Source: Promethearchaeota archaeon
GTDB lineage: Archaea > Asgardarchaeota > Lokiarchaeia > Sigyniarchaeales > SOKP01
DNA length: 55,505 nt
Direction of reading: 5' to 3'
Assembly (NCBI GenBank): GCA_019894715.1
Contig: JAGXOA010000072.1
Span: 1-55,505, forward strand
Positions 9,184 through 47,453 of the stretch are shown here, piece after piece. The position numbers and the translations under genes are program-made. The notes under the pieces are model-generated. The model saw only the letters and a list, made by a program, of their open reading frames with translations. It ran no database searches and was not told where the DNA came from. The number at the start of each line of letters is the position of its first letter. Within the stretch, counting starts at the first letter, position 1.

Positions 9184-9777
9184 TTAATATTGTGATATTT
9201 TTAAAAAATCAGCATCAGTAACTATACCTAAATATTTATCATATTTTTTTACTAAAACAGCAGAATATTTTAGTAAAATATTTGAAACATCTTTCAGACT
9301 CCAATCATATTTTACTTCTGGAAATGGAAGTTCCTTTAAATTCATTATATTTACATTTAAAATATCAGTATTATCTATTATAAGTTTCTGAACTTTTTTT
9401 GAAGTAATACTTCCTAAATTACGATTATTTTCTATAATAGGTAATTGAGAAATATTATATTTATTCATAAGTGAAATTGCTTCTTTTAATTTAGCATTAG
9501 AATCAATTGATACTAATTGCTTTGTTGTAATATCTTCTATTTTTTTTGATATCTTTTTTTTTTTCTTTTTTTCATTTTCTAAATATTCGAAAATAATTTT
9601 CACTCTAGAATAAGGAGGGTCTTCTCCACCATTTTCAATTCTAGATATTGATGATTGTGAGATATTACACTTTTGACTGAGTTCTTTTTGACTTAAATTA
9701 AGTTTCTTGCGTAAATCTTTTATTTTTGCTAAATTTGGTAATAAAATAAACATGCACCTAATGCATATAATATGCAT
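9184..9777 (-). CDS. XRE-type HTH plus CBS-pair transcription regulator
   Basis: LAKIKDLRKKLNLSQKELSQKCNISQSSISRIENG HTH followed by CBS domains. The true start is likely the internal Met at 9753 or further downstream. Confidence 0.88.
   Translation of the reverse strand: MHIICIRCMFILLPNLAKIKDLRKKLNLSQKELSQKCNISQSSISRIENGGEDPPYSRVKIIFEYLENEKKKKKKISKKIEDITTKQLVSIDSNAKLKEAISLMNKYNISQLPIIENNRNLGSITSKKVQKLIIDNTDILNVNIMNLKELPFPEVKYDWSLKDVSNILLKYSAVLVKKYDKYLGIVTDADFLKISQY
9761..9777. promoter_or_regulatory. Candidate operator palindrome in the divergent regulator/DUF39 intergenic region
   Basis: ATGCATAT-A-ATATGCAT, 17-nt perfect inverted repeat. Confidence 0.5.
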
Positions 9778-9861
9778 AGTATGGATAAAACAAATTTAAA
9801 TCTTTATAAATCAGTCAATTTTTCCTATGTTAAGTATGATTAAAATTATAAAAAACCACAA

Positions 9862-11349
9862 TTGATAGGTGGTAATATGGCTAAAACTTACAAAGAAATT
9901 AATGATAAAATAAAAAATGGTAATGCAGTTGTTATCACAGCAGAAGAAATGGTAAAATATGTTGAAGAAAATGGTCCAAAAGTAGCTGCTAAAGAGATAG
10001 ATGTAGTTACAACAGGAACTTTTGGTCCAATGTGCTCAAGCGGTGCATTTCTTAACTTTGGTCATTCTGATCCACCAATAAAGTTTGAACACCTATGGCT
10101 AAATGATGTTCATGCATATCATGGAAATGCCGCTGTGGATTGCTATATTGGAGTCACTCGGATGGTAGATATAAGACCTTTTGAATATGGTGGGGGTCAT
10201 GTTATAGAAGATCTTGTTGCTAGAAAGAAAATAAGACTAAAGGGAAATTCATATACAACAGATTGCTATCCTTTGGCAGAGATAGATACAGAATTTACTA
10301 TTGATGATCTTAATCAAGCTATACTATGTAATCCACGAAATGCTTATCAAAGATATGTATGTGCGGTAAATAGCTCTGATAGAACATTATATACGTATAT
10401 GGGTAAATTACTACCAAATTTTGGGAATGCACATTTTGCTGGGGCTGGAGCTCTCAGTCCATTAAGCAATGATCCTAATTATGAAACTATCGGTATTGGA
10501 ACAAGGATCTTTCTTGGTGGCGGAATTGGATATGTACTAGGAGAAGGTACTCAACATAATCCAAAAGGCAGATTTGGAACTCTTTTTCTAAAGGGAGATT
10601 TAAAACAAATGACTTCAGAATATCTCAGAGGAGCTACTTATCCAGAATATGGTACGTCTATGTTTGTTGGTGTAGGGGTTCCAATTCCTATTTTAAATGA
10701 AGATTTAGCGTTAAAAACAGCAGTAAGTAATTCAGAAATCTTAACAGATATAATTGATTATGGTATTCCAAGAAGAAATCGACCAAATATTCGACAAATT
10801 AGTTATGAAGAATTATTTAGTGGTGAAATAGATATAAATGGGAAAAAAGTAAAATGTTCTTCTTTATCATCTCAATATCACGCAAGAAAGATAGCTAATG
10901 AGCTGAAAGAATGGATTGAAAAAGGAGACTTTCTTTTGAATCCTCCAGCTGAAACTCTACCTACAGATAGTATTTATAAACCCATGAGACAATCATTAGA
11001 GCTCAAATTTGTAAAAGATCTAAAAAGGAAAGCTGTTACATGTTATGAAGATTGTGAAATTAAAATAGTTGCAGAAAGAATTATCAACAAAAATACAAAC
11101 CATATCATTATAACAACTCATGAGAATAAATTAAGAGGTATAGTTACTAGTTTTGATATTACTAAAGCCGTTGCTCAAGATAAGCACGAAATAAAAGAAA
11201 TAATAACTAAAAAAGTAATTACAACTACAGATAATGAGCCAATTGATGTGGCTGCTCGAAAAATGAAACAACATGAAATCTCGGCCTTACCTGTAATTGA
11301 TGAGCAAAATCATGTAGTTGGGATAATTACTTCAGAGGAGTTGATGTAA
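9862..11349 (+). CDS. Homocysteine biosynthesis protein (DUF39 plus C-terminal CBS pair)
   Basis: 495 aa; AKEIDVVTTGTFGPMCSSGAFLNFGHSDPPIKF signature and C-terminal CBS repeats. Confidence 0.92.
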   Translation: MIGGNMAKTYKEINDKIKNGNAVVITAEEMVKYVEENGPKVAAKEIDVVTTGTFGPMCSSGAFLNFGHSDPPIKFEHLWLNDVHAYHGNAAVDCYIGVTRMVDIRPFEYGGGHVIEDLVARKKIRLKGNSYTTDCYPLAEIDTEFTIDDLNQAILCNPRNAYQRYVCAVNSSDRTLYTYMGKLLPNFGNAHFAGAGALSPLSNDPNYETIGIGTRIFLGGGIGYVLGEGTQHNPKGRFGTLFLKGDLKQMTSEYLRGATYPEYGTSMFVGVGVPIPILNEDLALKTAVSNSEILTDIIDYGIPRRNRPNIRQISYEELFSGEIDINGKKVKCSSLSSQYHARKIANELKEWIEKGDFLLNPPAETLPTDSIYKPMRQSLELKFVKDLKRKAVTCYEDCEIKIVAERIINKNTNHIIITTHENKLRGIVTSFDITKAVAQDKHEIKEIITKKVITTTDNEPIDVAARKMKQHEISALPVIDEQNHVVGIITSEELM

Positions 11350-39371: not shown

Positions 39372-41615
39372 CTAAAGTATCTTTTTCAATTCTAGGATAA
39401 GTGAAGAAGGACTATATCTATCAAATTGATATATCTCAGCATTACCAAAATCTTTAAAATTTTTTTTAATTTGTTCTGCTGAATAAGGATGCACTCCGAG
39501 ATTTTGAGTAGCATAACTCTTTTTTGGCTCTAAAACAACCATATGTATATTTTGATGTGATAATGATTTTGTAATGTTTTTTAATTCTTGCACAACTGAT
39601 ATATAATCACTTTCAACTTGAGCGATTAGATCTGGATATTTTACTGAAATATTAGCTCCACAGTCAGAGCAAATAAAAATAACAGGTATAATATTTCTAT
39701 TTTTTAATTTCTCAATTTTTATCAATTCAAGACATTTTTTTAATCCTGCAGCCATAGGTGTATAGGATTTTCCTTCAAGATTTTTAAGTTTTTTAATTGC
39801 GTTTTGAAAAGATACTGTTGGTTTTTGCAATACAACTGCTTCTTTACCTCTAAAAACAATTAGACTAAGTTTATCTTTTTTTCTATATCCTTCCTTTTGG
39901 AGTGATAAAATTACATCTGTCATTTGCCTAATAACATAGTACATAGATGCAGAACTATCCAAAACAAAAAACAAGGCTAATGGAGCTCTGTATTCAAAAA
40001 TCTTATCCATAATATCATATTTATCAAATCTGATAGGAAATTCTATTCTAGTAGTGTTGTATATTGTATTTTTTAAATAATTTCTAATTGTTGCATCAAG
40101 AGCAATACTTTTAGGTTGGAGATTTACTGGTGCTCTGTATGATATATATCTTCCTTTTTGACTTGAGGAAATCTTAATTCTTCTCCCAATACCTCTACCA
40201 CCATAATTAGAGATTTTTCTTTCTTTACGTATATTATCTAAAATTGATGACATTTTCTTTTCCATATTAAAAATTAAGGGAATTGAATTATCTATTGTAA
40301 TATTGAATTTTTCATCTGAAGGTAATTCTTTTACTTTCCATCCTCCAGCAGGACTTGAATCTCTATTTTTTCCATCGGGATATTTAGGTGGAGGTAATTT
40401 TTGTTCTTTTGATTCAGGAAGGTCTAATTTGTTTGGGTCTATAGAATGTCTTTCAAATTCTTTTTGTGATTTATCAGAATGTTTTAAAGGTCCTTCCGTG
40501 TCTTTATTTGGTTTATAAATATCTGGATCTTCATATGCTTTTTTAATTTTTCCATATACTTCAGAAATTTTTCCCTTTATTTCTTCTGGAGTCATCTCAT
40601 AATGTAGAGATTTAATTCTGTGTTCAAAAACTAAATCCATTGCTGTATTAATATCCGTCTCACTAATTATCATTCTTTCTTTAAAAGCAGCATGGGCTCG
40701 AGCACATCTTATGAACGTTAAATCAGCTCTTTGAGAAAAAATTTCAAGTTCATTAACTATTTTTGAAACAATTTCATATATTGAATCGGGGATTTCTACA
40801 TTTTTAACTATATTTCGGGCTTTAACTAATTTATTTTTTAATTCTTCTTGATATTTTTCAAAATTTTTAATAAATTCTCTTGGATTATCATTATACCTTA
40901 TTACTCGCTTGGAAATTTCAGTTCTTAGTTTAAGATCTTGAGGTGCTAAGATTTTTACTTCTAAACCCAATCGATCTGCTATCTGAGGTCTTAATTCACC
41001 CTCCTCTGGATTCATAGAACCTACTAATACAAATCGAGAGGGATGCATAACCGATATACCTTCACGTTCGACAATATTAATTCCTGAGGCAGAAGCATCT
41101 AAAAGCGTGTCAACAATATGATCTTGCAGAAGATTAATCTCATCTATGTATAGTATACCTCTATTGGCTTTTGCTAAGAGTCCTGGATGTAATTCAGAAA
41201 TACCTTCTGTAAGAACTTTATCAATTGATAGGGACCCACAAACCATATCCTCTGTAACACCCAAGGGTAAGTTAACTAAATGCATATCTTTTTTTTCGAT
41301 TTCAATTGCTTTTTTTTCTTTTTTAATTTGACAATCTGAACATAAATCTTCAAAATTTGATTTTGGATCACATGAAAAGATGCATCCTTTTGCAATATCA
41401 ATTTGAGGCATGACTTCTACTAATGAACGGACTGCTGTAGATTTACCTGTCCCTTGATGACCTGATAATAACACACCTCCTATTTGAGGATCAATAACAT
41501 TTAAAATTAAAGCCATTTTCATTTTATCTTGACCAAGTATAGCTGTAAATGGGAAATTAAGTTTTTTCATTAAAAAGACTTTTAGTATTAATTTATTGAT
41601 AACTAAAATATTCAA
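39372..41615 (-). CDS. Magnesium chelatase-like AAA+ ATPase fused to VWA domain (ChlI/ChlD-type)
   Basis: LLSGHQGTGKSTAVRSL, GILYIDEINLL; VWA MIDAS-like LFFVLDSSASMYY. Likely start MKKLNF at about 41570. Confidence 0.9.
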   Translation of the reverse strand: MNILVINKLILKVFLMKKLNFPFTAILGQDKMKMALILNVIDPQIGGVLLSGHQGTGKSTAVRSLVEVMPQIDIAKGCIFSCDPKSNFEDLCSDCQIKKEKKAIEIEKKDMHLVNLPLGVTEDMVCGSLSIDKVLTEGISELHPGLLAKANRGILYIDEINLLQDHIVDTLLDASASGINIVEREGISVMHPSRFVLVGSMNPEEGELRPQIADRLGLEVKILAPQDLKLRTEISKRVIRYNDNPREFIKNFEKYQEELKNKLVKARNIVKNVEIPDSIYEIVSKIVNELEIFSQRADLTFIRCARAHAAFKERMIISETDINTAMDLVFEHRIKSLHYEMTPEEIKGKISEVYGKIKKAYEDPDIYKPNKDTEGPLKHSDKSQKEFERHSIDPNKLDLPESKEQKLPPPKYPDGKNRDSSPAGGWKVKELPSDEKFNITIDNSIPLIFNMEKKMSSILDNIRKERKISNYGGRGIGRRIKISSSQKGRYISYRAPVNLQPKSIALDATIRNYLKNTIYNTTRIEFPIRFDKYDIMDKIFEYRAPLALFFVLDSSASMYYVIRQMTDVILSLQKEGYRKKDKLSLIVFRGKEAVVLQKPTVSFQNAIKKLKNLEGKSYTPMAAGLKKCLELIKIEKLKNRNIIPVIFICSDCGANISVKYPDLIAQVESDYISVVQELKNITKSLSHQNIHMVVLEPKKSYATQNLGVHPYSAEQIKKNFKDFGNAEIYQFDRYSPSSLILELKKIL

Positions 41616-42097: not shown

Positions 42098-43048
42098 TTA
42101 AAATTTATTTTCTAATTCTTGGAATTTGTTTTCCAGATTAATTGTTAGATCATCCCATTTTGACAAAATTTCTTTTACTTTTGGAATAACTATATCTCTT
42201 TCTTTATACTCCAAATAATCCAAAAATTCTTTTATCATTTCTATCTTCATATAGGTTGTTGCAGCAAATTTTCGTATTTCTTTAGTTTGTGTTTCAAGAA
42301 CTTCTTGAGTTCTCTGTTTTTCACCTTTTCGAACAAGTGTGATTAGATATTCCTCAGTACCTATTAATCGAGAGTTCAAATCATTTACTTTCTCATTGAT
42401 ATATTTTTCATAAATTTTATAAATATCTTTGTTTGGAAATAAATTCGTTATCTCAATAACAAATTTTTGTGTCAGTTTTATACATTGTTCCATATTTTCA
42501 TATCCTTGAATTATGTAATCATTTTCATGATATGATGCTTCAATCCCTCGATTTACATCATCCAATCTATAAATCTTAAATCCAGGATCGCTTTTTAATT
42601 GAATAACTGGATTTCCTTTTTTATCAGGGAGTTCAATTTGTCTAATTAAACGATCGGGATTAAAAACCAAAGATATCGCTTGAGGATTAAATTGTTGATA
42701 TGAAAGTGTTGTTTTTACATCGAGTTGTGACATCATAACTTTAAAACCTGGATGAGAATGCCACCAACCAACAGTAAATTCCCCTCTTGAGAATGCAGCA
42801 TCATCTATAATACTAAATGATTCGTAATCTTCATTTGACCAATAAACCTTATCAATAACATCTTCTGGATTTTTAACTTGGTGAGTTATTGGATAGGCTT
42901 GAGAAATAATTACATTATTACCCTCATTTTTTCCAATAAAAACGCCGTATACTTCTAACCAATCATCATCTGAAATTCTTTTATTAGCATATCTCACTGC
43001 TGCTGCTACAATTGTTAAATATACTTTTTTAGGAATAATAATAGTCAT
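42098..43048 (-). CDS. JAMM/MPN+ metalloprotease-like protein with C-terminal helical region
   Basis: E..GVFIGK...VGWWHSHPGFKVMMSQLD (complete JAMM). The track ORF extends to 43225, but its N-terminus translates the repeat at 43149; MTIIIPKKV at 43048 is the better start. Confidence 0.87.
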   Translation of the reverse strand: MTIIIPKKVYLTIVAAAVRYANKRISDDDWLEVYGVFIGKNEGNNVIISQAYPITHQVKNPEDVIDKVYWSNEDYESFSIIDDAAFSRGEFTVGWWHSHPGFKVMMSQLDVKTTLSYQQFNPQAISLVFNPDRLIRQIELPDKKGNPVIQLKSDPGFKIYRLDDVNRGIEASYHENDYIIQGYENMEQCIKLTQKFVIEITNLFPNKDIYKIYEKYINEKVNDLNSRLIGTEEYLITLVRKGEKQRTQEVLETQTKEIRKFAATTYMKIEMIKEFLDYLEYKERDIVIPKVKEILSKWDDLTINLENKFQELENKF

Positions 43049-43741: not shown

Positions 43742-44410
43742 TTGACTGAAAAAGGTTTTACACCCTTAACAAGCCAATTAGGAATTCCTGGTACCTCATA
43801 TCGGCTTCAATTAGGACTTATTAATGAAAAATGGGCAAGTAGGCTTTTAAAAGGAAAAAACGCAATTGATTCCTATATATACAAAGATGATGATTCAATG
43901 GGGGGATTTCCTAATCAAAATCTTATAGTTGGATGGGTATTACGAACAGTAGCAATTCCAAATATAAATCCACATCAGGTTATGAAAACTACTCAAGCTT
44001 TAGTGAAACAAGCAATGCAAAATAAGGATAAACAAAAGTTCATAACACCTCTCTCAGAAACAAAAGATGTTGAATTAGAGAAGGTTCCTGAGAATGAATT
44101 AAAACGTCCTAAGGCAAGTGGATGGATTGAAAATGAAGCTCCTAATGTTGTTACTGAAGAAAGTAAGCGAAAAGCATTTCAAGAGAGGTTTTCTTCATTG
44201 CAAGGAGGCGAAACAGCAACCCAAACCCATTCAAGAAGAAATTTACCAACAATTCCTAGTACAAACTCAAATACATCTAACCTCCAAACAAATTCTGAGA
44301 GCTCTGGAGGATCAAGAGGCATTATAGAGACGCAATATTGCCCACATTGTGGAAAAGATCTAAATTGGAAATTCTGTCCACATTGTGGAAAACAAATACC
44401 ACATTCATAA
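43742..44410 (+). CDS. Unknown N-terminal domain plus C-terminal double zinc ribbon
   Basis: 222 aa; Ser/Thr/Asn-rich linker and YCPHCGKDLNWKFCPHCGKQIP; TTG start with upstream AGGTGA. Confidence 0.75.
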   Translation: MTEKGFTPLTSQLGIPGTSYRLQLGLINEKWASRLLKGKNAIDSYIYKDDDSMGGFPNQNLIVGWVLRTVAIPNINPHQVMKTTQALVKQAMQNKDKQKFITPLSETKDVELEKVPENELKRPKASGWIENEAPNVVTEESKRKAFQERFSSLQGGETATQTHSRRNLPTIPSTNSNTSNLQTNSESSGGSRGIIETQYCPHCGKDLNWKFCPHCGKQIPHS

Positions 44411-44663: not shown

Positions 44664-46106
44664 TTGAAAGAACGAATGTCGAATTATAGGGACAATACAA
44701 TAGTAAAGATAAAACCAATAGCATATTACAAAATGCTAGTGCATATATTGAGATATGGTTCAAAGACACGACCACACCATAAATTTAAAGAAGTTATGGG
44801 GATGATTATTGGTCATTTGGAGGGAGATGGCAAAATAAAAGATGTTATCATAGAGGATGCTGTACCTGTATCGCACGGCGGGTCAATAGAAGTTGATTTT
44901 TCATCATCAGACTATGGAAAATTTGAAGCAATCAATGTAGAGGCAGGTGAGAGAAATATGTTTACTCTTGGGTGGTACCATAGTCATCCTGGTCTTAGCA
45001 TCTTTTTTTCAGGTACAGATATTAGAAATCAACAAGGTTGGCAAGTACCAAATCCTAGTGCAGTAGGAATTGTATTTGATCATACATATTTAGAGTCTCC
45101 TGGAGATCTAGGATTTAGAACATTTAGACTGGATGATCCTAGTAAAAATAATATGTTAAGATATCATGAAGTAGAGACAATTGTTGAAATTCCAGATTCA
45201 CTTGATTTCTATGATTACATTATTGATTTAATTGGCAAAATTCATTCTAAAGAACCTCCTATATTGGAATTAAATGAAAAATTTAATATTTTTGATGATA
45301 TAAGCATTCCTGATGATAATCAATTCAAACATGAAATATCTCAATTAGACTCGAATAAAATTATTGATACGATAAAGACAAATATTTCTGGAATGATTGA
45401 ATCATTATTGAATCCATTGATTTTAATGATTAATAATTGGAGTCAAAATTTAGGACAAGGAATGTTTAATAATAATTTATCAACGAAAGAAGCTCTAAAA
45501 AATTTAAAAAATATTCTCATTACAGAAATTGATCAATTACAAAATACTATACTTTTTACTTTGCAATATAATTTAACAAACTTAGATATGTATATTGATG
45601 ATAGGTTTGATGTCATAACTAAAATCTTTAAGAAAATTGGCGATTCTATTAATAATTTAGAGGAAAACATAATCAATCAAATTAAGGATTCATTTAAAGA
45701 AATAAATCCAGAATTAGAAAAAAAATTAATCTCGTTATTTAAAACTGAAATCGAAAGTATTGAAAATATAATTGATAATAATAAAGATTTAGAAAAGGAA
45801 GTAGATAAACAAAATGAAATAGTAGGAAATTTAGAAAATATTAATTCTCTTATACAAGATAAGATAACAAAAGAGTTTAATGAATATTATAAAAATGTAG
45901 AATTTGAATATGATAAAATCCATAAAAATACTCAAGAATCTCTGGATCAGTTTGAAAAGAATTTAGAAAAAATCACTTTTAGCATCAATAATCTAAAATC
46001 AGAATATGAGAATTCAACAACTAGATTGAATAAGAAAATTGAAGCTTTAAAGGATGAGAATAATAAATTAAAAAAACAATTAAATGAAAAAAAAGTAGGA
46101 GAATAA
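44664..46106 (+). CDS. Rpn11-like JAMM/MPN+ protein with C-terminal coiled coil
   Basis: KEVMGMIIGHLEGD...LGWYHSHPGLSIFFSGTDIRNQQGWQVPNPSAVGIVFD; resembles Rpn11 GWYHSHPG-x5-SGxDI. Confidence 0.9.
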   Translation: MKERMSNYRDNTIVKIKPIAYYKMLVHILRYGSKTRPHHKFKEVMGMIIGHLEGDGKIKDVIIEDAVPVSHGGSIEVDFSSSDYGKFEAINVEAGERNMFTLGWYHSHPGLSIFFSGTDIRNQQGWQVPNPSAVGIVFDHTYLESPGDLGFRTFRLDDPSKNNMLRYHEVETIVEIPDSLDFYDYIIDLIGKIHSKEPPILELNEKFNIFDDISIPDDNQFKHEISQLDSNKIIDTIKTNISGMIESLLNPLILMINNWSQNLGQGMFNNNLSTKEALKNLKNILITEIDQLQNTILFTLQYNLTNLDMYIDDRFDVITKIFKKIGDSINNLEENIINQIKDSFKEINPELEKKLISLFKTEIESIENIIDNNKDLEKEVDKQNEIVGNLENINSLIQDKITKEFNEYYKNVEFEYDKIHKNTQESLDQFEKNLEKITFSINNLKSEYENSTTRLNKKIEALKDENNKLKKQLNEKKVGE

Positions 46107-46109
46107 ATC

Positions 46110-47453
46110 ATGAATGATGTGAAATTAGATGATGAACAGATTTATATTACCAAAGAAGCATTCAGGAATATGATCACTCATGTACTTAGATTTGGACATG
46201 ACTCTTTAGAGACAAATTATGAAGTTATTGGATTTTGCTTGGGTAGACAAGATGAGGATGGAAAAACACAATTAATAAATGCTATTCCAGTATCTCATGG
46301 TAAAGGTATTCAAATTAGTATTTCCCAAAGTTATATAGATTTAATAATAAAAATTGAAGAAAGTTATAAAGAACAAGATATTAAAGTAATTGGTTGGTAT
46401 ATCTCTCATCCTTCCAATGGTGTAGAATGGAATGAACAAGATAGAAAAAATCACCTATCTATTCAAAACAATAAAAAACCAAAAGCCTTTTCGATTGTTT
46501 TTGATCATAAATTGCTAAAGAAGGAAAATAATTTTGGATTTAAAATATATAGACTTTTAGACTATAAAAAAGGAGATTTAAATAGGTTCAAATTAATAGA
46601 TTTTAAGATTGAAGAACCAAAAACTATGGATTATTTTAAATGGGTTAAAAAATTTGCTGAAGATTTTCATAAAAGTAATCCAATTTTAATTAACGAGATA
46701 AGAGAAGTCTCAGAAACTATACCTAATGATCTGCAAGAAATACCTGCACCGATTGAAGACTTTGAAGAAAAAGAATCACTCCCATTAGAAAGGCTTAAAT
46801 CATCCAATACTGAGTTCATAAACAAAATTAATACTTTTATTTATGGTGATATTAAAAACTGGATGCAAAATATAGATCAAATAACTCTGGATGGAAGTGA
46901 TAAATTATTGAAGTTAATATTAGAAATAAATGGAAGCATATCATCAGGTATGAATAATTTGAGAAATTGGAGCAAACAAGAGATTATAAGTCTGACTGAT
47001 CGTGTTAAAGAAACAGCAAAAGATCTTATTAATAAAAATATTGATGATCAAAAAGATTTTATATCTCAAATTAAAAAAAAGCAAGAAAAATTAGAAGAAG
47101 AAGCCATTAGAATAATAAATGAGCAATCAAAGAATAATACAGAATTTATTAAAGCAAAAATTGGATCTTTTCATGAAAAAATAGATGATCTAAAGACAAA
47201 CCAAATCAAAGTTAAAGCAGATATTAATAATATTGGTGCAAGAATATTAAAAACAAAAAATAAAATGGATATTATAACTAAAACCATTTCAAATAAGTTA
47301 AAAGAGATTATAGACAATAAAAGAAATGAGAATATAAATAAATTAAATTCAATGAATACTAAGATTAATAAATTCGACAAAGAGGTTTTAGAAATTAATG
47401 AAAAAGTAAAAGATTTAGAAAATAGTATCAGTAGTTCTTTGAAAAAAATTTAA
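46110..47453 (+). CDS. Degenerate JAMM (MPN-) paralog with C-terminal coiled coil
   Basis: Paralogous to the preceding ORF, but the motif reads GWYISHPSNGVEWNEQD: first His is Ile and the JAMM Ser is Asn. Starts 3 nt after the upstream stop codon. Confidence 0.85.
   Translation: MNDVKLDDEQIYITKEAFRNMITHVLRFGHDSLETNYEVIGFCLGRQDEDGKTQLINAIPVSHGKGIQISISQSYIDLIIKIEESYKEQDIKVIGWYISHPSNGVEWNEQDRKNHLSIQNNKKPKAFSIVFDHKLLKKENNFGFKIYRLLDYKKGDLNRFKLIDFKIEEPKTMDYFKWVKKFAEDFHKSNPILINEIREVSETIPNDLQEIPAPIEDFEEKESLPLERLKSSNTEFINKINTFIYGDIKNWMQNIDQITLDGSDKLLKLILEINGSISSGMNNLRNWSKQEIISLTDRVKETAKDLINKNIDDQKDFISQIKKKQEKLEEEAIRIINEQSKNNTEFIKAKIGSFHEKIDDLKTNQIKVKADINNIGARILKTKNKMDIITKTISNKLKEIIDNKRNENINKLNSMNTKINKFDKEVLEINEKVKDLENSISSSLKKI

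What the first reader, a model, noticed from the sequence alone, without database searches (positions are those of the whole stretch)
44664..47453. Adjacent MPN+/MPN- pair: an Rpn11-like JAMM protein followed by a catalytically degenerate paralog
Seen directly: two paralogs 3 nt apart. The first has the complete JAMM set (E; HSHP-x6-SGTD). The second keeps the surrounding fold sequence (EVIGFCLG, GWYxSHP, SIVFDH) but has Ile for the first zinc His and Asn for the Ser. Both continue into long helical/coiled-coil C-termini. Eukaryotic JAMM enzymes are known to work as MPN+/MPN- heterodimers (Rpn11-Rpn8, CSN5-CSN6, BRCC36-KIAA0157). Inference: this may be an archaeal obligate MPN+/MPN- heterodimer scaffolded by the helical tails.
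Basis: partly seen in the sequence, partly recalled or inferred. Interest (0 to 1): 0.88.

Follow-up and report, generated by a model that had tools for sequence, protein, structure and literature searches.

The report
Archaeal enzyme with inactivated twin partner
Nearly all close relatives of this Lokiarchaeal (Asgard) microbe carry, side by side, a gene for an intact ubiquitin-removing-type zinc enzyme and a gene for its full-length twin; the twin's active site has been destroyed about a dozen separate times while the gene stayed under selection, which suggests that the twin matters as a binding partner rather than as an enzyme.

Summary
Confirmed: 44664-46106 (P) encodes an intact JAMM/MPN+ protein and 46110-47453 (M) a whole-length paralogue with a broken active site (E-I-H-N-D for E-H-H-S-D), 3 nt apart on one strand. 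The genome is Lokiarchaeal. The pair is conserved in order: across the class M was found in 59 genomes, with P adjacent in 56; in the other 3, M lies at a contig edge. Among 50 non-redundant pairs, P is intact wherever readable, but M is intact in 15 and broken in 35, in many different ways. P and M are sister clades and every related single JAMM examined is intact, so the pair began as MPN+/MPN+. M then lost catalysis about 12 times (10-14 over bootstrap trees) under purifying selection (dN/dS about 0.1-0.35), without rate acceleration. Best explanation: P and M form one assembly in which P is the isopeptidase and M a structural or allosteric partner, functionally like BRCC36-KIAA0157 or Rpn11-Rpn8 but of independent origin. 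A direct interface was not shown: AlphaFold on the read-through fusion did not fix the domains' arrangement. The pair is Lokiarchaeal, not Asgard-wide.

The parts
44664..46106 (+). P: MPN+ JAMM protein, 480 aa (TTG start; ATG at 44676 possible). Catalytic set E43, H106, H108, S116, D119; residues 244-445 predicted as one long helix
   Evidence: motif intact in all 47 fully readable orthologues
46110..47453 (+). M: paralogue of P, 447 aa, catalytic set degenerate (E38, I98, H100, N108, D111); residues 233-444 predicted as one long helix
   Evidence: purifying selection
46097..46102 (+). AGGAGA, likely ribosome-binding site of M inside the end of P (translational coupling)
   Evidence: direct reading of the sequence
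42098..43048 (-). JAB3: third JAMM protein, 316 aa, intact motif, divergently transcribed; conserved neighbour, never seen broken at the catalytic residues
   Evidence: ORF call extends to 43225 but orthologues start at 43048
43742..44410 (+). conserved 222-aa protein upstream of P: ~100-aa N-terminal domain with no PDB fold match plus a C-terminal zinc ribbon; found at 43 of 50 pair loci

Best explanation
P and M are the two halves of one obligate isopeptidase assembly of Lokiarchaeia. A tandem duplication of an intact long-tailed JAMM protein gave MPN+/MPN+ twins, co-transcribed and probably translationally coupled (inferred from spacing). P alone supplies zinc-dependent cleavage of ubiquitin-like conjugates. 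M contributes its MPN fold, the helix after it and the ~200-residue helix as the partner that holds P in an active or correctly targeted shape. Because M's contribution is structural or allosteric, its own active site was dispensable, and lineages lost it repeatedly (about 12 times) without losing the gene. Shown: anatomy, conserved pairing, sister-clade origin, ancestral intact state, parallel loss, purifying selection. Inferred: the physical heterodimer, that P is the active subunit, and that the substrate is a ubiquitin-like modifier.
For: Adjacent in 56 of 59 genomes with M (rest at contig edges), intergenic distance -26 to +17 nt in 50 pairs; no family genome listed has one without the other away from a contig break, and seven show neither full-length gene, two of them 97-99% complete. 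P intact in 47 of 47 readable orthologues against 15 of 50 for M. P and M are sister clades; all 13 related single JAMMs, JAB3 and the other own JAMMs tested carry E-H-H-S-D. Irreversible-loss count 12 (10-14 over 300 bootstrap trees); zinc-ligand losses 10 (8-11). dN/dS in close broken pairs ~0.10-0.35; M/P distance ratio 1.36 for broken against 1.27 for intact sister pairs, i.e. no relaxation after loss. Conservation of helix 1, the post-MPN helix and an LQEIP motif persists in zinc-less M. Precedent: pseudo-DUB KIAA0157 is required for BRCC36 activity (PMC4579573).
Against: No interface was seen or computed: the AlphaFold fusion gave pTM 0.36 and no coordinates. Effective depth (~25 sequences) is too small for inter-protein coevolution analysis. 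Adjacency could reflect co-regulation only. JAB3 next door is a possible alternative partner. No ubiquitin or E1/E2 gene was identified at the locus; the canonical ubiquitin operon with its own JAMM lies elsewhere. P-M tail lengths do not covary positively. All data are metagenome assemblies.
Confidence: 0.62

Rival explanations
1. P and M are separate proteins kept in one operon for co-expression. Intact M is a second isopeptidase with its own substrates; broken M became a ubiquitin-like-binding decoy or reader that does not dimerise with P.
For: M is catalytically intact in 15 of 50 pairs; no interface shown; operon proximity alone does not prove binding.
Against: Strict one-to-one co-presence and co-absence; whole-length paralogy including the tails; MPN dimers are usual in known pairs (literature); no rate change on loss of catalysis.
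Confidence: 0.17
2. The unit is larger: P, M and JAB3 (perhaps with the 222-aa zinc-ribbon protein and the AAA+-VWA ATPase) form one complex, and M's role is to bridge to these rather than to pair with P alone.
For: JAB3, the zinc-ribbon protein, a ~94-aa and a ~780-aa protein and an AAA+-VWA gene recur around the pair; no CobN/ChlH chelatase subunit in this genome, so the AAA+-VWA protein probably does something else.
Against: JAB3 is divergently transcribed and is absent from the sampled neighbourhood in some lineages that keep the pair (L097, L099, L100, L115).
Confidence: 0.15
3. Broken M is a pseudogene in decay, or the first reader's pattern is an artefact of assembly.
For: M diverges somewhat faster than P (median ratio 1.36) and some M sequences are on long branches (L061, L062).
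Against: Open full-length frames in the 50 pairs, dN/dS ~0.10-0.35 in close broken pairs, the same broken motif in independent genomes (window and L072).
Confidence: 0.02

Closest known systems
BRCC36-KIAA0157/Abraxas (BRISC, BRCA1-A)
   Same: MPN+ enzyme with MPN- pseudo-DUB partner, each an MPN domain followed by coiled-coil helices; in BRISC the dead partner is needed for activity (PMC4579573)
   Different: Tails here are ~200-residue single helices; M's best PDB relatives shown are MPN+ enzymes, KIAA0157 not among the 60 best; M is still intact in a third of the pairs; dimer not shown
Rpn11-Rpn8 of the proteasome lid / CSN5-CSN6 of the COP9 signalosome
   Same: P's and M's MPN domains are closest to Rpn11 and CSN5 in sequence and fold; active plus dead paralogue
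   Different: No lid or signalosome context at the locus; PCI hits in the genome are weak and unspecific; the dead partner arose independently within Lokiarchaeia
CsRpn11 of Caldiarchaeum (PDB 6fju/6fjv)
   Same: Best PDB sequence hit of P (E 4.8e-11); archaeal Rpn11-like JAMM
   Different: Single protein encoded in the ubiquitin operon, with no MPN- partner; its authors state the Rpn11-Rpn8 type organisation is not known in archaea (PMC6043591). The equivalent in this genome is the separate JAMM on contig C7 beside E1 and E2

Membership tests
JAMM/MPN+ metalloprotease (P) | E and HxHPx6SxxD motif in a JAB/MPN domain | tested here: met
JAMM/MPN+ metalloprotease (P) | zinc binding and isopeptidase activity | not testable with these tools
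   needs purified protein
JAMM/MPN+ metalloprotease (M of the window) | complete E-H-H-S/T-D set | tested here: not met
   E-I-H-N-D
MPN- pseudoenzyme (M of the window) | MPN fold with zinc ligands lost, gene retained under selection | tested here: met
   JAB 37.2 bits, I98 for His, dN/dS 0.24 against L072, dS near saturation
MPN+/MPN- heterodimer (functional class) | physical MPN-MPN interface | tested here: inconclusive
   fusion model pTM 0.36, no PAE or coordinates
Rpn11-Rpn8 / CSN5-CSN6 (orthology) | M groups with Rpn8/CSN6/eIF3F-type MPN- proteins | tested here: not met
   M is sister to P (no eukaryotic sequences in that tree); the 60 best PDB hits of the M profile hold Rpn11, CSN5, BRCC36 and AMSH but no Rpn8, CSN6 or KIAA0157
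Rpn11-Rpn8 / CSN5-CSN6 (complex) | PCI scaffold subunits | tested here: inconclusive
   only weak PCI hits genome-wide, and control genomes also ring
BRCC36-KIAA0157-type pair | MPN domain plus C-terminal coiled coil on both subunits | tested here: met
   long helices predicted in both; hydrophobic periodicity ~3.6 in both tails, about 5 times shuffled; coiled-coil pairing itself not shown
BRCC36-KIAA0157-type pair | dimer of heterodimers, K63 specificity | not testable with these tools
   needs biochemistry

The most novel reading that the evidence does not exclude
Lokiarchaeia hold a non-eukaryotic MPN+/MPN- isopeptidase pair in which the partner's scaffolding or allosteric job was established before it lost catalysis. 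The loss then happened about a dozen times in parallel, so the archaeal family preserves every intermediate (active/active, general-base-only loss, zinc-site loss) of the route by which Rpn8, CSN6 and KIAA0157 may have arisen.
Probability: 0.5. Interest if true: 0.87.

Novelty: new variant of a known kind. Interest (0 to 1): 0.72.

Why it matters
Eukaryotic JAMM deubiquitinases work with catalytically dead twins, but why a dead twin is kept, and how it comes to be dead, is hard to study because the eukaryotic pairs are few and old. Here one pair family in an Asgard lineage shows active/active, half-dead and fully dead partners side by side in living genomes. Testing the P-M pair from each class would show whether dimerisation came before pseudo-enzyme status and what the partner contributes. 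A published account states that the MPN+/MPN- organisation was not known in archaea (PMC6043591).

Tried and rejected
1) Decay of M: rejected. 2) M as an orthologue of Rpn8/CSN6: rejected. 3) A fixed MPN- state: rejected. 4) Interface by AlphaFold on the natural read-through fusion (P and M are in one frame; TAA read as Gly; 22 fused rows plus 30 single rows): domains fold, arrangement unresolved, no coordinates returned. 5) Tail-length covariation of P and M as a sign of pairing: r = -0.37, no support. 6) Function of the 222-aa zinc-ribbon neighbour by fold: no PDB match. 7) The AAA+-VWA neighbour as a metal chelatase: the CobN/ChlH partner family is absent from this genome. 8) An unordered parsimony count gives a minimum of 5 changes, but that needs whole active sites to be regained, so irreversible loss was used. 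9) One of the 12 losses (L094) may be gene conversion: residues ~60-120, holding the active-site loop, match another clade better (0.61-0.65 against 0.39-0.53).

Full report
OBSERVATION. The window (G000:C56, 55,505 bases) belongs to a 3.36-Mb, 98% complete genome. Its nearest named relative is a Lokiarchaeota assembly (L072, Zod_Metabat.578). ORFs 44664-46106 and 46110-47453 are as described. P holds E43-H106-H108-S116-D119, M holds E38-I98-H100-N108-D111. Both pass Pfam's JAB cut-off. In the PDB, P matches archaeal Rpn11 (6fjv, E 4.8e-11), Rpn11, CSN5 and BRCC36. P and M align over nearly the whole length. AGGAGA at 46097-46102 sits before M's ATG, inside P.

SURROUNDINGS. A third JAMM gene (JAB3, 42098-43048, minus) lies 1.6 kb upstream and is intact. 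Across 50 pair loci the usual order is AAA+-VWA(<) JAB3(<) zinc-ribbon protein(>) P(>) M(>) ~94-aa protein(<) ~780-aa protein(>). The canonical ubiquitin operon of the same genome is on contig C7: ubiquitin-like protein, E1, E2 and its own 264-aa JAMM. So the window pair is an additional JAMM system, not the operon enzyme.

CONSERVATION OF THE PAIR. A class-wide search (83 genomes) finds M in 59, with P next to it in 56. In the other three M lies within 700 bases of a contig end (counted by hand from the listing). Seven family genomes show neither full-length gene, among them two of 97-99% completeness. Pairs also occur in three genomes of sister families (G038, G040, G048) but were not seen outside Lokiarchaeia.

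CATALYTIC STATE. In 50 non-redundant pairs P is complete in all 47 readable cases; the other three lack sequence or read X. M is complete in 15 and broken in 35: 22 lost a zinc ligand, 13 kept all three ligands but lost the catalytic Glu (mostly E to Q). The broken sets differ: EIHND (window), ESHSE, ELHSG, EIRTT, ECNAH, EHRSD, DIHSD, ETHND, NRSND, SSRNN, EVHTD, KLHTD and others.

HISTORY. P and M are sister clades (100/100 within the pair tree; joined at 100/88 with 13 single JAMMs added). All single JAMMs, JAB3 and the own-genome JAMMs tested are EHHSD, so the intact state is ancestral. With irreversible loss, M lost the set 12 times (10-14 over 300 bootstrap trees) and zinc ligands 10 times (8-11). 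Catalytic columns were left out of the tree. One case (L094) may be gene conversion.

SELECTION. Close pairs with broken M have dN/dS ~0.10-0.35 (YN00), no higher than the closest intact pairs (0.33-0.52); window/L072 is 0.24 by NG86 with dS near 1. The M/P distance ratio is 1.36 for broken and 1.27 for intact sister pairs. Loss of catalysis did not visibly relax M. In zinc-less M, helix 1 (0.70), the post-MPN helix (0.68) and the LQEIP motif (0.75) remain among the best-conserved elements, with the core strand.

STRUCTURE. P and M are in one frame, so reading TAA as Gly gives a natural fusion. Other loci whose genes are also in one frame served as paired rows, 22 fused rows in all. The model has both MPN domains at pLDDT ~75-92 and one helix of ~200 residues after each, pTM 0.36. 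Foldseek: Rpn11 of the Rpn8-Rpn11 dimer (E 1.6e-9), CSN5, BRCC36, CsRpn11. No coordinates are returned, so the interface is untested. Both tails show a hydrophobic period near 3.6, about five times shuffled.

MECHANISM. The simplest account is that M's essential job is not catalysis: M pairs with P and shapes or targets it, as KIAA0157 does for BRCC36 (PMC4579573), and P does the chemistry. Pairing is inferred, not shown.

COMPARISON AND NOVELTY. It works, on this reading, like BRCC36-KIAA0157 or Rpn11-Rpn8, but M is not an orthologue of the eukaryotic MPN- subunits: its sister is P, and its best PDB hits are MPN+ enzymes. A 2018 study says the organisation is not known in archaea (PMC6043591); searches of the open library found no later report, though subscription papers and preprints are not held. 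I rate it a new variant of a known kind. The unexpected part is the parallel loss.

Noticed in passing
JAB3 orthologues in L078 (=L057), L093, L094, L095; e.g. L057:12224-13210: A 30- or 31-nt insert lies at one exact place inside the catalytic loop (HSHPGF|KVMMS), bringing stops or a frameshift while both flanks stay conserved. It fits an archaeal bulge-helix-bulge mRNA intron: central helix GGCU/AGCU (GGUU/AACU in L095, a compensatory change), 3-nt bulges; cutting them by the usual rule restores the frame in all four. A pattern built on the insert hits once, only at this locus, in 58 genomes. The splice grammar is loose, so RNA evidence is needed. The window's own JAB3 has no insert.
   Followed up: partly
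39372-41615 (-): AAA+-VWA protein resembling fused cobalt/magnesium chelatase subunits (TIGR02442 567.8 bits, below its cut-off), found at 30 of 50 pair loci, in a genome with no CobN/ChlH hit: probably not a chelatase.
   Followed up: partly
43742-44410 (+): Very conserved 222-aa protein (59% mean column identity) with a well-predicted ~100-aa N-terminal domain without any PDB fold match and a C-terminal zinc ribbon: orphan Lokiarchaeal family tied to the pair.
   Followed up: partly
M residues 208-212 (window 46731-46745): Nearly invariant LQEIP motif after the MPN domain, kept in intact and broken M alike: possible docking motif.
   Followed up: no
L094 M gene: Probable gene conversion of the active-site segment from the EIRTT clade.
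   Followed up: partly
L116:8389-9216 and 9287-10471: Helarchaeal single long-tailed JAMM followed by a ThiF/E1-like ORF and a VWA-like ORF (by eye from the translations).
   Followed up: no
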